48,031 nucleotides of DNA, from the NCBI GenBank assembly GCA_023666965.1, contig JAMPAZ010000009.1:1-48031 (forward strand). The letters are read 5' to 3'. The position numbers were made by a program, and so were the translations under genes. The notes below the pieces were generated by a model. It was not told the origin of the DNA. It worked only from the letters and a program-made list of their open reading frames with translations, and did not search any database. Shown in pieces: positions 13,366 to 42,508 of this stretch. This stretch comes from Muribaculum sp. GTDB taxonomy: Bacteria > Bacteroidota > Bacteroidia > Bacteroidales > Muribaculaceae. Every line of letters starts with the position of its first letter. Position 1 is the stretch's first letter.

Positions 13366-14811
13366 ATGGTTCAACTTCTTATTCCCCGACATGCATTGGC
13401 ATCATGGCTGTTGAAAGTCATCGACAACTTTCTGACCACGATTGGATTGACTCGTTCCGGTACTGCCGAACAGATCGTATACACGATAGTGGTTATCGGT
13501 GTGGCATTGCTTTTAGGATGGATTATACGTAAAATCGTGGTTTTAATTCTACAAAAGATTGTCTACCGCCGTCGCACCATGTTGATAGAAGATCTGCAGC
13601 GCGAGGAGATTATTAGAAAAAGCACTCATATAATTCCCCCCTTAGTATTTCTTGCTTTAATACCTTTTGCGTTTGAGACCGATCCGAAGACGCTCTCTTA
13701 TATAGTTCGGTTTGTGCTGATTTATTTCCTGATTGTTCTCGGGTGGACTATCTGTGCTGTTTTTAATATTGTGTGGTCGTATTATGACAGACGTGAAAAC
13801 ATAAAGAAGCTGCCTTTGAGAGGGGTGCTGAACATCACTAAGGGAATTGTCTGGATTATCATAGCTATAATAATTATCTCCATTATTTTAGATAAGTCAC
13901 CCGGAACACTTTTGGCCGGACTGGGGGCATTTGCCGCTGCGTTGATGTTAATTTTTAAAGACTCGATTTTAGGGTTCGTGGCCGGTCTTCAGCTGTCGTT
14001 CAACGACATGGTGAGAGTAGGCGATTGGATTGCCGTGCCGGGAACCATTGCTAACGGCATCGTGGTGGACGTCTCGTTGACCACTGTGAAGATACGTAAT
14101 TGGAACAATACCACCCTGACAATACCGCCGTACACTCTCGTCTCTACTCCCCTTCAGAATTGGAACAAAATGAAGGAGCGCGGGCGTCGTCAGATAGAGA
14201 GTTCGCTGCTTATCGATGTCAGCACTGTCGCGCCGTCTACGCCTGAACTTCTGGACAGGCTAAAGAAGATTGATATAATGCAGGACTATATCACAGTTAA
14301 TCAGCAGTGGGCTGCAGAAGGGAAGGCTACCAGCCTGATGCAAGGCGATGTGCACGTCAACGGAAGTATCGACACAAACCTCGGACTTTTCCGTGCCTAC
14401 GTCGGTCTGTATCTGCGTCGTCACCCATACGTGTCGGTAGACTCTGGAGCCACGTGCATGGTGCGACTGCTTGAACACACTCCTAACGGCATCCCGTTGC
14501 AGGTGTTCTGCTATGTAAATACGGTCGACTGGGTCACGTTTGAGGGCATTCAGAGCGACATATTTGAGCATTTGATGGCTATTGCGCCAACTTTCGGGCT
14601 CTCGGCTTTCAGTTCTCCCACTGGCCGCGATGTCGTCAACATTGCCAATGCAAATCCGCAAGGGCTTCCGTATAACGGCACTGCGCCGGTGAATATGCCG
14701 GCATACGATCCTAAGACCAATTTTGTGATTCCTCCGAATACATCAGGCGACCCGGGATACACTTTCTCAACCGTGGCTGTCTATCCTAAGGATTTAGAGC
14801 CTGTCCCATAA
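13366..14811 (+). CDS. MscS-family mechanosensitive ion channel
   Basis: The protein has 481 residues. About five hydrophobic helices precede the MscS pore region, GTLLAGLGAFAAALMLIFKD, rich in small residues as expected for the pore-lining TM3. The MscS beta domain follows: GFVAGLQLSFNDMVRVGDWI, then GIVVDVSLTTVKIRNWNNTT with IPPYTLVSTPLQNW. The channel opens under membrane tension and releases solutes on osmotic downshock. The C-terminal ~60 residues are Pro/Asn/Gly-rich. The last four codons and the TAA stop lie inside the left terminal repeat of the element at 14797-15149, so the native C-terminus has been replaced or trimmed. Of the larger-MscS (YbdG-like) type by length. Confidence 0.92.
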   Translation: MVQLLIPRHALASWLLKVIDNFLTTIGLTRSGTAEQIVYTIVVIGVALLLGWIIRKIVVLILQKIVYRRRTMLIEDLQREEIIRKSTHIIPPLVFLALIPFAFETDPKTLSYIVRFVLIYFLIVLGWTICAVFNIVWSYYDRRENIKKLPLRGVLNITKGIVWIIIAIIIISIILDKSPGTLLAGLGAFAAALMLIFKDSILGFVAGLQLSFNDMVRVGDWIAVPGTIANGIVVDVSLTTVKIRNWNNTTLTIPPYTLVSTPLQNWNKMKERGRRQIESSLLIDVSTVAPSTPELLDRLKKIDIMQDYITVNQQWAAEGKATSLMQGDVHVNGSIDTNLGLFRAYVGLYLRRHPYVSVDSGATCMVRLLEHTPNGIPLQVFCYVNTVDWVTFEGIQSDIFEHLMAIAPTFGLSAFSSPTGRDVVNIANANPQGLPYNGTAPVNMPAYDPKTNFVIPPNTSGDPGYTFSTVAVYPKDLEPVP

Positions 14812-15149
14812 TATCTGTTAAGTCTGAGGCGGTCAGCCATTGAGTAGATTTATTCGTGAGATGAGGGAGTGTACTTGACGTACACGACCGAAGAACACGG
14901 ATAAAGATGCCAATGGATGGCCGAGGCGAAAGTAACTAGCCCTCGTTTCTGACTGGCGTTGAGGAAAGATAATGATTTCATGCATGAATAACGCAGTGGG
15001 ACAAAGAAAATTACTTTTGCTTCGCATCTCCCGGGCGCTTTTGACGCCGGCTCACGGTCACAATGCCACAGCATTGCTCCCTCTCACCGCCTCCAAAATC
15101 ACTCCGAGATATGCGACCTCAGCGTTAACATATATTATGGGACAGGCTC
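14797..15149. mobile_element. MITE-like element 1 (353 bp)
   Basis: Terminal inverted repeats begin GAGCCTGTCCCATAATAT at both ends and extend ~35 bp with few mismatches. TTA flanks each end (14794-14796 and 15150-15152) as a 3-bp target duplication. Inside are a long hairpin (14838-14915) with GTGTAC-TTGAC-GTACAC at its core (14869-14885) and an inner inverted repeat, GCGAAAGTAA (14926-14935) with TTACTTTTGC (15011-15020). No transposase is present; short frames inside look non-coding. The TWA duplication resembles that of IS5-family and PIF/Harbinger-type elements. The element is homologous to 40629-41103. Confidence 0.8.
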
Positions 15150-15310
15150 TTAGATGCATCGGCCGACGATTCCGCGCCGTCCGGTGCCGCTCCAAAGACT
15201 TAGACACCTTAATTTAATAAATATTAAAATGAGTGTATGAGAGTAAACGCAAGCCTATATGGGTGGGTTATAATATTACGAATATCTAAAAATTACAAAA
15301 ACTCCGGTTT
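15150..15310 (+). other. Leader region of the efflux operon
   Basis: An AT-rich 161-bp spacer between element 1 and the outer-membrane factor gene. No TAnnTTTG box or repressor gene is visible in it. The nearest plus-strand -7 match upstream is TACTTTTG at 15012-15019, inside the element. Confidence 0.4.
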
Positions 15311-40484: not shown

Positions 40485-40511
40485 AACTGTTTTTTGTGAC
40501 CTTAGCTAATG

Positions 40512-40542
40512 CAAAAGTAGCATTATATTGGTATTCCGCAAA
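40512..40542 (-). promoter_or_regulatory. Promoter of the DUF6155 gene
   Basis: On the minus strand TTTG (40542-40539) and TACTTTTG (40519-40512) are 19 bp apart, a full consensus. The leader would be about 23 nt. Confidence 0.65.
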
Positions 40543-40628
40543 GTGGGTGGAAAATATTTGTATGATTTGGTGCTTGTTTGGTCAAAATTTCCTGATTATT
40601 GTTCTTATTTTCTCTTTTGAAGGAATAA

Positions 40629-41103
40629 GAGCCCATTCGATAAGGAATGTTAGCGCTGGGGTAGCATATCCTCGAGGGATTTTGGTCGTGAGGTGAGGGC
40701 GCGTGGCCGTAGCCACGTAACCGAACCGAACGGCCAAAAGCACCGAGGAGATGCGAAGGCGATGGTAATTTTTGTTGTATCATGGAGCGAAGTATTTCGT
40801 GGCTGGAAAATTACCGAAGACTTTGCCGAAATTACGAACGCTAAATATCAACGGCATCGGCTATGTGCCAAATAACGTGTATTGCCATTCTAATCAAGCA
40901 CTTATGGTAGAACATTAATTCATCATATTAAATATGCTGTTCGTGCTGTAGGCGGTGAAGGAAATTACCATCGCCTCGGCCTCTCATTGGCAGATTTATC
41001 CTTGTTCATTGGTCGTGTACATCAAGTACACTCCCTCTTCACAAGGATGAATCTGCTCAATGATAGTCCGCCCCAGCGTTAACATTCCTTATCGAATGGG
41101 CTC
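40629..41103. mobile_element. MITE-like element 2 (475 bp)
   Basis: Terminal inverted repeats begin GAGCCCATTCGATAAGGAAT at both ends (about 33 bp, one mismatch). TAA flanks both sides (40626-40628 and 41104-41106) as the target duplication. Near the right end is a hairpin, CAGATTTATCCTTGT (40991-41005) with ACAAGGATGAATCTG (41041-41055), around GTGTAC-ATCAA-GTACAC (41015-41031). GGCGATGGTAATTT (40758-40771) and AAATTACCATCGCC (40962-40975) form a perfect inner inverted repeat flanking a core of about 190 bp. No transposase frame is present. It is homologous to element 1 in opposite orientation. Confidence 0.85.
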
Positions 41104-41124
41104 TAAAAATCCGGTAAAAATGTT

Positions 41125-41132
41125 TACCTTTG
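41125..41132 (+). promoter_or_regulatory. -7 box of the second FadL-like gene
   Basis: TACCTTTG lies 36 bp before ATG 41168. The -33 box should be near 41101-41105, exactly the junction of element 2 with the chromosome, and no TTTG is there. Confidence 0.5.
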
Positions 41133-41167
41133 TGTCGTATAATTTAATCATAATTAAAATTCAAGAG

Positions 41168-42508
41168 ATGAAAAAACTTTTTCTGTCGTTTATTGGCATT
41201 GTGGTTCCTTTTCTAACCTTTGCGGAAGGTTACCAGGTAAATACATTGAGCGCCAAGCAGGGAGGTATGGCGCATACCGGCGTTGCATTAAAGCTCGGAT
41301 CTGAGAGCATGTACTTTAATCCGGCGGGTATGGGATTCATGGATAAGACGCTCGACTTGTCAGGTTCGCTTAATGCCGTGATGCCCACGGCCAAGGCAAA
41401 GCATGACGGCAAGTGGTATGAGACTGATAATAAGGTGAGTACCCCGATGATGCTTTCTGCCGCATTCAGCATTTATGACAATTTGAAAGCGGGAATAACC
41501 CTTTATACTCCTTATGGAAGCAATATCAATTGGGGCGACAATTGGCCCGGCGCGATATTAAACCAAAAGGTCAGTCTAACTACATTTACTATTCAGCCTA
41601 CCTTGGCTTGGCGAATAACGCCGAAGCTTTCTGTCGGTGCAGGATTGATGATTGCTTGGGGAAATGTTGACTTATATAAGGGACTTGTGGTGCCCGGAAC
41701 TCTCGACAAGATGCTTCAAGCGATGGGTATGCAGTATGCATTTGGCAATACAACCCCGGCATCGGTCAATCTGACGGGAACCGCAAATTTGGCTTTAGGC
41801 GTAAATGTCGGGGTCATGTATGACATAGACAGCCGATGGACAGTCGGGGTCAATTTCCGTTCGAAAATGTCAATGAAGGTGAAGAAAGGGGATGCAAGCA
41901 TCATATATGCCAACGAAGTGGCTCAAAACGTACTTGGGGAAACACTGAATGTGCTGAATACGGCTAATTTTGCCGCTGAAATGCCAATGCCGGCCGTTCT
42001 TACTTTTGGAGTAAGCTTCAAGCCGATTGAGACACTGACGTTAGCTTTTGATGCACAAATGACTGGTTGGAAGACTTATAAGCATCTAAATATAGACTTT
42101 CTTGACGAAAAACTCACGGCATACAACCAGAGTCTGACGAAGAAATATAAGAATGCCTGGGCATTCCGTTTAGGTGCGCAGTATGCCCTTACGAATCGCT
42201 TTGACGTGCGTGCCGGCTTAATTGTGGACATGACTCCGGTCAACGATGAGCATTATAATCCGGAGACGCCGGGAATGACAAAAATTGAACCGTCGATAGG
42301 TTTTTCGTTCAGACCGATAGATAATTTGTCTATAGATTTCTCAATGATGTATGTGGCCGGCCTTGGCAAGAACGGCGCTAAGTGCACGTATGAAGATTTG
42401 CTGGCAAAAACGGCTCAAGGATTGCTTGGCGGGTATGAAAAAACTTTCGAGGCTGACTATCGTGTCAATGCATACGTGCCATCGATAGGCGTTTCATATT
42501 CATTCTGA
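41168..42508 (+). CDS. FadL/OmpP1-family outer-membrane transporter
   Basis: The protein has 446 residues from ATG 41168 (AAGAGATG context); a longer frame from 41060 reads through the end of element 2 and is rejected. The signal peptide is MKKLFLSFIGIVVPFLTFA. The mature N-terminus EGYQVNTLSAKQGGMAHTG and SMYFNPAGMGFM are the FadL hallmarks (NPA-type hatch). Strands with GAGLMIAWG, GVNVGVMYDIDSRWTVGVNF and FRLGAQYALTNRFDVRAG follow, and the protein ends in IGVSYSF. It probably passes long-chain fatty acids or other hydrophobic compounds. A lipoprotein gene follows 78 bp later. Confidence 0.92.
   Translation: MKKLFLSFIGIVVPFLTFAEGYQVNTLSAKQGGMAHTGVALKLGSESMYFNPAGMGFMDKTLDLSGSLNAVMPTAKAKHDGKWYETDNKVSTPMMLSAAFSIYDNLKAGITLYTPYGSNINWGDNWPGAILNQKVSLTTFTIQPTLAWRITPKLSVGAGLMIAWGNVDLYKGLVVPGTLDKMLQAMGMQYAFGNTTPASVNLTGTANLALGVNVGVMYDIDSRWTVGVNFRSKMSMKVKKGDASIIYANEVAQNVLGETLNVLNTANFAAEMPMPAVLTFGVSFKPIETLTLAFDAQMTGWKTYKHLNIDFLDEKLTAYNQSLTKKYKNAWAFRLGAQYALTNRFDVRAGLIVDMTPVNDEHYNPETPGMTKIEPSIGFSFRPIDNLSIDFSMMYVAGLGKNGAKCTYEDLLAKTAQGLLGGYEKTFEADYRVNAYVPSIGVSYSF

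What the first reader, a model, noticed from the sequence alone, without database searches (positions are those of the whole stretch)
40758..40975. Compensatory changes between the two elements imply conserved folding
In element 1 the inner arms read GCGAAAGTAA and TTACTTTTGC; in element 2 they read GCGATGGTAA and TTACCATCGC. Both arms changed together. The terminal repeats behave likewise: they differ between elements but match within each. This is the signature of selection on a structure (RNA or cruciform DNA), or of arm-to-arm gene conversion, rather than of plain sequence conservation.
Basis: partly seen in the sequence, partly recalled or inferred. Interest (0 to 1): 0.75.

Follow-up and report, generated by a model that had tools for sequence, protein, structure and literature searches.

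The report
Mobile DNA ends with conserved hairpins
The two repeats are shortened, transposase-less copies of a jumping gene, and their ends carry a hairpin whose two sides have changed together across many related bacteria, which suggests that a folded single strand helps such elements to spread.

Summary
E2 (40628-41104) and E1 (14796-15150, minus strand) are MITE-type elements with TIRs and TWA flanks, each keeping a vestige of an IS5-family transposase. The terminal repeats do change together across the family, but their mismatches show no pairing bias (G.T 11, A.C 14). The 'compensated' inner arms hold for these two elements, not for the family (identity 0.51 within, 0.47 between). The real covariation is in a ~98-nt hairpin, H, inside each terminal repeat: 95% of cells paired, 25 of 33 pairs with two-sided changes. 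It is strand-specific: on the inward strand G.T outnumber A.C 63:16 between families, against 14:13 in singletons of resident copies, so selection seems to act on copies that spread. H occurs in 85 of 149 family genomes. In relative G004, nine of nine 163-bp MITEs carry H, while six IS copies with the same TIR tip and open transposases lack it: H is an accessory, not a general transposase requirement. Mechanism: inferred. Rfam: no match.

The parts
40628..41104 (+). E2, 477-bp MITE-type element (transposase-deleted IS5-family element); flanking repeat TAA at 40626-40628 and 41104-41106
   Evidence: TIR pair; boundaries and flanking repeats; single full copy in the assembled genome
40628..40659 (+). 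E2 left terminal inverted repeat and spacer (32 nt)
40660..40757 (+). E2 left hairpin H (98 nt)
   Evidence: R1 match 88 bits; RNA fold -54.5 kcal/mol, z -7.5; DNA -30.1, z -6.8; opposite strand as RNA -42.1, z -5.7
40759..40768 (+). E2 left inner arm (GCGATGGTAA)
40779..40868 (+). vestige of the C-terminal end of an IS5-family transposase (MERSISWLENYRRLCRNYER*...)
   Evidence: tblastn 57% over 30 residues, E 5e-9; translation; also found (44%, residues 212-250)
40965..40974 (-). E2 right inner arm
40976..41072 (-). E2 right hairpin H (97 nt, pointing inward)
   Evidence: R1 match 74 bits; RNA fold -49.0 kcal/mol, z -10.3; opposite strand -47.7, z -10.5
41073..41104 (-). E2 right terminal inverted repeat and spacer
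14796..15150 (-). E1, 355-bp MITE-type element; flanking repeat TTA at 14794-14796 and 15150-15152; two further copies at 97% on contigs C10 and C55
15119..15150 (-). E1 left (transposase-sense) terminal inverted repeat and spacer
15021..15118 (-). E1 left hairpin H
   Evidence: R1 match 89.7 bits
15011..15020 (-). E1 left inner arm (GCAAAAGTAA on the minus strand)
14937..14981 (-). vestige of the transposase N-terminus, MKSLSFLNASQKRGL, beside MKPNSLLNIKQKRWL of the relative in L021 (judged by eye)
14926..14935 (+). E1 right inner arm
14828..14924 (+). E1 right hairpin H (pointing inward)
   Evidence: R1 match 79.7 bits
14796..14827 (+). E1 right terminal inverted repeat and spacer; it supplies the stop codon of the mscS-like ORF 13366-14811

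Best explanation
E1 and E2 are non-autonomous, internally deleted copies (MITEs) of IS5-family insertion sequences with IS1031-like ends. Their fullest relatives (L174, L133, L063) have the order TIR - hairpin H - transposase - hairpin H - TIR, with both H pointing inward. Shown by computation: H is a strand-specific structure kept by compensatory change between families, on both ends and with several TIR types, while copies already sitting in a genome appear to lose it freely. Also shown: some MITEs carry H although the insertion sequence with the same TIR tip and an open transposase has none. Inferred: H is an accessory cis module of the mobile unit. It is not what the transposase must bind, but it raises the chance that a copy is made and kept in circulation. 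The strand that runs inward from a tip folds, most likely as single-stranded DNA while the element is copied or moved (possibly as RNA), and a common host partner recognises the fold with its conserved GARGGAG / GACYGA internal-loop bases. TIR co-change has a separate cause: both ends must fit the same transposase.
For: Element identity: TWA flanks (27 of 38 distinct places have identical 3-bp repeats, 36 of 38 are TWA on both sides); transposase vestiges in E1 and E2; relatives with DUF4096 and DDE_Tnp_1 domains; a 670-bp intermediate with both H and part of the transposase (L093); a relative without E1 at the same site. H: 18-row MAFFT alignment, 95.3% of cells paired, 25 of 33 pairs with two-sided change, covariation score 0.631 v. 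shuffled 0.218 and at most 0.154 when partners are slid; 96 distinct rows, 92.3%, 0.645 (alignment fitted to the model). Strand: G.T 63 v. A.C 16 in 24 rows under 80% identity (41:16 without the two most G.T-rich pairs); left ends 35:8, right ends 23:5; nine rows from eight genomes with single-H loci 23:5. 80 of 82 H near a transposase piece point inward (rows partly redundant). Resident copies: singletons G.T 14, A.C 13 (v. 63:16, p 0.011); 56 of 316 paired and 24 of 152 unpaired sites hit; 37 of 56 paired singletons break the pair. Accessory, not transposase-bound: in G004, TIR tip AGAGATTGTCTAAA bounds nine 163-bp MITEs, all with H, and six 870-bp IS with an open 271-aa frame, none with H inside. 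Copy number: H in 19 places in G407, 18 of 19 in 192-194-bp elements; 79 matches in G036; 99 in G004. No orientation bias to host genes (11 v. 11 co-directional).
Against: No transposition assay, RNA-seq or probing is available; movement of the G004 MITEs by the same-TIR IS is inferred from the shared tip. If the transposase works without H, a benefit of H at movement is not obvious, and an RNA or host-level role gains weight. Seven H-less IS5-family relatives of 877-910 bp were found (no H), three of them with open frames (L171, L175, L177). L042 has an intact 279-aa transposase and lacks the right H; L022 lacks it too. One of the four resident-copy families (G004) gave singletons 6:1, so the 'free decay' result rests on the other three and is small. 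Counted by pairs, the strand bias at the 80% cut is weaker: 18 pairs favour G.T and 7 A.C, p 0.04; 16 and 7, p 0.09, without the two richest pairs.
Confidence: 0.45

Rival explanations
1. H acts as RNA in transcripts that read into the element from flanking genes: the folded leader insulates the ends or keeps the transposase from being made from host promoters, like the fold-back control of IS10 and IS50 (recalled); in MITEs it would shape host transcripts instead.
For: Inward orientation on both ends and the G.T excess suit an inward transcript. The left H lies upstream of the transposase start. H folds well as RNA. H is absent from IS copies whose transposase should not need it, so a role outside the transposition reaction is possible.
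Against: Right-end H is antisense to the transposase, yet has the same strand bias (23:5). MITE families without transposase keep H. No terminator-like tail follows H in E2. H is not placed preferentially in the sense direction of neighbouring genes (11 v. 11).
Confidence: 0.3
2. The arms co-change without selection, by templated correction of an imperfect palindrome (strand switching) or gene conversion between arms.
For: Long palindromes are prone to templated repair (recalled). One G041 subfamily shows several adjacent compensated changes in the same copies.
Against: Templated repair should not favour G.T over A.C; 63:16 between families against about 1:1 in resident copies argues for selection. 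The internal-loop bases are kept while the stems change: 103 of 122 distinct H carry both motif halves, counted with slightly loosened, unanchored patterns. Left and right H of one element are hardly homogenised.
Confidence: 0.08
3. H is kept because it is useful to the host where it sits (mRNA stability, attenuation).
For: Copies avoid divergent promoter regions: 12 convergent, 2 divergent, 22 co-directional of 36 complete cases among 40 loci, with a crude ORF caller; 39 of these 40 loci hold a single H match. MITE transcripts are described as forming stable stem-loops (PMC10969869, passages).
Against: Resident copies show no clear sign of keeping pairs (one of four families, goes the other way). 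No orientation bias. The placement is what purging of harmful insertions alone would give.
Confidence: 0.08
4. The whole element is selected to fold end to end (TIR with TIR, inner arm with inner arm).
For: E2 folds as one closed structure, -230 kcal/mol. TIRs co-change.
Against: TIR mismatches show no G.T excess (11:14); inner arms do not co-vary.
Confidence: 0.05

Closest known systems
IS5 family of insertion sequences (IS1031-like group)
   Same: Transposase domains DUF4096 + DDE_Tnp_1 and NCBIfam NF033580; short TIRs, many starting GAG or GAC; 3-bp TNA-type duplication (the group's TNA rule is recalled).
   Different: H-less relatives found here are 870-910 bp; H-bearing relatives with transposase are 958-1182 bp with a ~100-nt hairpin in both ends (L141, L133, L174, L063), or in the left end only (L042, L022).
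MITEs of Porphyromonas gingivalis (MITE464/PgRS, BrickBuilt), with IS5-family TIRs
   Same: Bacteroidales MITEs whose TIRs match IS5-family elements (ISPg1 GAGACCATTGCA and others; PMC4596501, passages read); long predicted stem-loops.
   Different: BrickBuilt stem-loops come from its tandem direct repeats and no transposase remnant is kept; no covarying, strand-specific hairpin was seen in the passages read.
REP/REPIN palindromes with RAYT transposases; IS200/IS605 ends
   Same: Small non-autonomous units with imperfect, strand-specific hairpins, many copies per genome (recalled; PMC3116915 seen in the listing only).
   Different: Those are mobilised by HUH single-strand transposases (recalled); here the relatives encode a DDE transposase and the elements have TIRs and target duplications.
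IS110-family bridge RNA
   Same: A structured, covarying sequence in the non-coding end of an insertion sequence (PMC11208160, listing and start of abstract only; the covariation and its place are recalled).
   Different: Different transposase family; H is a single hairpin on one or both ends, and guide loops were not looked for.

Membership tests
IS5 family (parent of E1/E2) | IS5-type DDE transposase in the autonomous relatives | tested here: met
   DUF4096 and DDE_Tnp_1; NF033580 is the best NCBIfam hit, at or below its cut-off for these partial copies (109 of 110 bits for L021); vestiges in E1 and E2
IS5 family, IS1031-like group | 3-bp TNA target duplication | tested here: met
   E1 TTA/TTA, E2 TAA/TAA; 27 of 38 places identical, 36 of 38 TWA on both sides; the group's definition is recalled
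IS5 family, IS1031-like group | placement of the transposase in the group by a tree with reference members | not tested
   No ISfinder reference set on hand
MITE | short, TIR-bounded, no functional transposase, dispersed copies | tested here: met
   E1: three copies of 355 bp, about 97%; in G004, 22 loci with E-type ends have TIR pairs 338-352 bp apart; E2 itself: one copy only
MITE | mobilised in trans by a present-day transposase | tested here: inconclusive
   Own-genome transposases with E1-type ends are split over two ORFs (L022) or interrupted by N (L021); no E2-type partner found. For the 163-bp MITEs of G004 an open same-TIR IS exists; movement itself not tested
Known Rfam RNA family | match to a covariance model | tested here: not met
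   No match over the window; none at H with E up to 1 in L022, L024, L066, L093 (two matches elsewhere in L022) or with E up to 0.1 in ten further loci
REP/RAYT or IS200/IS605 | HUH (Y1) transposase, no target duplication | tested here: not met
   Relatives carry a DDE transposase and 3-bp flanking repeats
Intrinsic terminator | stem followed at once by a T run | tested here: not met
   The only terminator-like site in 40500-41300 is at 40534, outside E2; not tested for other copies

The most novel reading that the evidence does not exclude
H is a portable helper hairpin: MITEs with many different TIRs, some matching insertion sequences that lack H, carry the same fold on the strand that runs inward from the tip. 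It would work with several DDE transposases through a shared process, as folded single-stranded DNA (or a cis-acting RNA) that makes a copy more likely to move. DDE insertion sequences with TIRs are not usually thought to use such a part.
Probability: 0.3. Interest if true: 0.8.

Novelty: new variant of a known kind. Interest (0 to 1): 0.65.

Why it matters
MITEs and IS5-family elements are ordinary, but a covarying, strand-specific hairpin shared by MITE families with different TIRs, and present in MITEs whose matching insertion sequence lacks it, is not something I found described (searched Bacteroidales + MITE + IS5; other searches; open-licence papers only). If H helps copies to move, elements that use TIRs and DDE transposases also profit from folded single strands, and the many H copies in Bacteroidales become a natural test set. 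The covariance model also gives a way to find these elements, which Rfam misses.

Tried and rejected
Whole-element folding as the selected unit: rejected for the inner arms and unsupported for the TIRs. Terminator: rejected for E2. Known RNA: no Rfam match at H. Host-gene orientation as a clue to an RNA role: no bias. H as a general requirement of the transposase: my draft leaned this way; checking one search's loci showed H beside, not in, two G004 IS copies, and searches showed that this IS lacks H while MITEs with its TIR tip have it. I lowered the best explanation from 0.55 to 0.45 and raised the RNA rival from 0.25 to 0.3, the host-use rival from 0.07 to 0.08, the portable-module reading from 0.25 to 0.3 and interest from 0.6 to 0.65 for that reason. 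A first count of resident-copy mutations used folds that included flanks and TIRs; its singletons were G.T 11, A.C 13, and it was replaced (H only, 6:1, small) and on three other families. L306, at 41 differences a different family, was dropped; with it singletons were 10:13 in those three families, without it 8:12. Rows dropped elsewhere: three reverse-strand matches and five short ones (107 to 99 rows); four reverse-strand matches. Pairs with poor TIR agreement at the fixed offset (L097, L111, L187, L188) were left out. could use 17 of 21 elements. One search stopped with an error after printing 10 of 17 elements; eight of the ten have a credible TIR pair (L174 with H; L171, L175, L177, L181, L139, L140, L145 without), L172 and L143 do not; six of the rest were retried, mostly without a good TIR. 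One search contained one wrongly typed place (L325, no hit). In one search the TIRs of a few loci (for instance L236, L264) were not well placed.

Full report
What is there. The finding's interval (40758-40975) is the interior of a 477-bp element, E2, at 40628-41104, with imperfect terminal inverted repeats. The comparison element, E1, is at 14796-15150 on the minus strand, 355 bp. Both are flanked by 3-bp repeats (E2 TAA/TAA, E1 TTA/TTA). The genome, an assembly of 2.4 Mb in 66 contigs, holds two more copies of E1 at 97% identity (C10, C55), one full copy of E2, and several partial or transposase-bearing relatives. One same-genus genome, G005, appears to be Barnesiella sp. WM24, since L132 matches its transposase at 100% on a contig of the same length; close hits are mostly MAGs named Muribaculaceae, Porphyromonadaceae or Bacteroidales.

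Origin. Two relatives in the same genome, L021 and L022, share the left end of E1 and encode IS5-family transposase pieces (DUF4096, DDE_Tnp_1, NF033580). L093 in relative G012 is a 670-bp intermediate with both ends and parts of the transposase. E2 keeps some 20-30 codons of a transposase C-terminus (40779-40868, 57% over 30 residues). E1 keeps what looks like the first 15 (14937-14981, by eye). E1 and E2 are therefore separately deleted derivatives. E1 lies in the 3' end of an mscS-like gene. In G012 (L319, the one homologue examined) the gene runs on without an element, and joining the flanks of E1 minus one TTA gives an open C-terminus of similar make-up.

TIRs: in 21 distinct elements, left and right TIRs agree at 0.96 within an element and 0.76 between elements (0 of 2000 permutations). 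This is real, and expected if one transposase must bind both ends. If the TIRs were kept for pairing, leftover mismatches should favour G.T on the pairing strand; they are G.T 11, A.C 14, other 16. Inner arms: 0.51 within and 0.47 between in 17 usable elements, 781 of 5000 permutations as high. E1, E2 and L117 are the three with 9 or 10 of 10 matching positions (E1 through its copy L020).

The hairpin H. Starting 32 nt from the tip is a ~98-nt hairpin. The 13 ends first aligned share it in the same inward orientation, with conserved GARGGAG and GACYGA around an apical stem whose sequence changes freely. On an 18-row MAFFT alignment, 95.3% of cells form standard pairs, 25 of 33 pairs have two-sided changes, and the covariation score is 0.631, against 0.218 in shuffles and at most 0.154 when partners are slid by 1-3 columns, a control that keeps relatedness. 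On 107 model-aligned rows (96 distinct) the score is 0.645, with slid values of at most 0.136; on one of five measures (pairs with a two-sided change, 28) 12 of 500 shuffles do as well. That alignment leans towards the structure, and three of its rows are reverse-strand matches. Of 122 distinct H in two model searches, 103 carry both motif halves by loosened patterns. Left and right H are two recognisable types.

Strand. Selection on a palindrome in double-stranded DNA gives G.T and A.C mismatches equally; selection on one folded strand tolerates G.T. On the inward strand the counts are 321 v. 50 over 99 rows and 63 v. 16 over the 24 rows under 80% identity (41:16 without the two most G.T-rich pairs). 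By pairs rather than cells, 18 favour G.T and 7 A.C at that identity cut (p 0.04), which is weaker. The bias holds on left ends (35:8, 12 representatives of 47) and right ends (23:5, 9 of 33), and in nine rows from eight genomes with single-H loci (23:5). The right-end strand is antisense to the transposase, so a role in the transposase mRNA alone cannot explain it. Near transposase pieces, 80 of 82 H point inward (rows partly redundant). Of the two exceptions, L183 appears to be a MITE beside an IS; L111 was not followed up.

Resident copies. In three MITE families of G041 and G036 (41 copies after dropping L306) and one of G004 (18 left and 23 right H), singletons, taken as changes after insertion, give G.T 14 and A.C 13, against 63:16 between families (p 0.011). 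56 of 316 paired sites and 24 of 152 unpaired sites carry one (p 0.69), and 37 of 56 paired singletons break the pair. G004 alone was 6:1. The numbers are small, but they suggest that installed copies decay freely and that selection acts on copies that spread. They also make a strand-biased mutation process an unlikely cause of the G.T excess.

Distribution. The model finds H in 85 of 149 genomes of the family (20 of 30 genera) and in 10 of 295 of the order, 7 of them in other families. Read by eye, the loci of six of those seven genomes look like ~160-200-bp single-H MITEs with their own TIRs; L202 (G168) showed no TIR. G407 has 19 H matches, 18 of them in 192-194-bp elements; G034 alone carries about four TIR types around H.

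H and the transposase. Of the eight relatives with a credible TIR pair, seven are H-less, 877-910 bp, with 89-112 nt from TIR to start; the H-bearing L174 is 1112 bp with 243 nt. The clearest case is G004. The tip AGAGATTGTCTAAA bounds six 870-bp IS copies, each with an open 271-aa frame and no H inside. The same tip bounds nine 163-bp MITEs, each with one H, and one more that is interrupted by a double-H MITE. In four of the six IS copies a 163-bp MITE abuts the IS with one base between, always on the 3' side of the transposase. So this transposase works, by its copy number, without H, and yet the MITEs with its tip carry H. This goes against my draft reading that the transposase needs H, and for H as a portable accessory. 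Whether single-H MITEs got H from the H-bearing IS lineage or the reverse is open.

Mechanism. I favour an accessory cis role in spreading, with the inward strand folding. The identity of the elements and the structure of H are well supported; the step from 'kept in copies that spread' to a benefit at movement is inference, as is the choice of DNA over RNA. An RNA role in transcripts reading in from outside is the main rival.

Literature. The prokaryotic MITE review PMC10969869 (passages) says that MITE transcripts form stable stem-loops. PMC4596501 (passages) describes P. gingivalis MITEs with IS5-family TIRs. PMC12730594 was read in passages only, for IS5 subgroup names. Nothing seen describes a covarying hairpin in the ends of IS5-family elements; the library lacks most subscription papers.

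Noticed in passing
window 14796-14811: The E1 tip supplies the last residues (LEPVP) and stop codon of the mscS-like ORF 13366-14811; the native C-terminus appears to lie on the far side of E1.
   Followed up: yes
L328 (G004:C1:308700-310200) and L327 (G004:C1:582500-584000): H-less IS copies directly abut a 163-bp single-H MITE with the same TIR tip, one base apart (four of six IS copies); in L328 a further H MITE with another TIR abuts the other end. Either insertion next to element ends is favoured, or the pair moves as one unit.
   Followed up: partly
L059 (C11:1094184-1094211), L060 (C55:14358-14385), L061 (C11:535777-535804): 28-bp palindromes AGAGCCCATTC-6 nt-GAATGGGCTCT (up to 2 mismatches) made only of the E2-type TIR, flanked by TAA or TTA: TIR-to-TIR relics without any interior. 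A similar 63-bp relic of the E1 TIR is at L096:1514-1576.
   Followed up: partly
contigs C1, C3 and C17 of the own genome (L028, L095, L025): These contigs end inside E1-type sequence, so the assembly probably holds fewer E1-type copies than the genome.
   Followed up: no
L062 (G004:C1:2413800-2418400): An H-bearing IS copy is split by other sequence with a 460-aa ORF that looks like another transposase (by eye).
   Followed up: no
window 40485-41170: E2 sits between two divergent genes (DUF6155, minus; FadL/TodX-type outer membrane protein, plus). The mechanical ORF start at 41060 lies in E2; an ATG at 41168 is the likelier start.
   Followed up: no
38 element places: In 9 places the flanking triplets are TAA on one side and TTA on the other, which a strict 3-bp duplication does not give; recombination between copies is one possible cause.
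   Followed up: no
L281, L285, L289, L291 (G041): A subfamily of resident MITEs shares adjacent, mostly compensated changes in the middle stem (pairs 20-73, 21-72, 22-71 of the family consensus).
   Followed up: no
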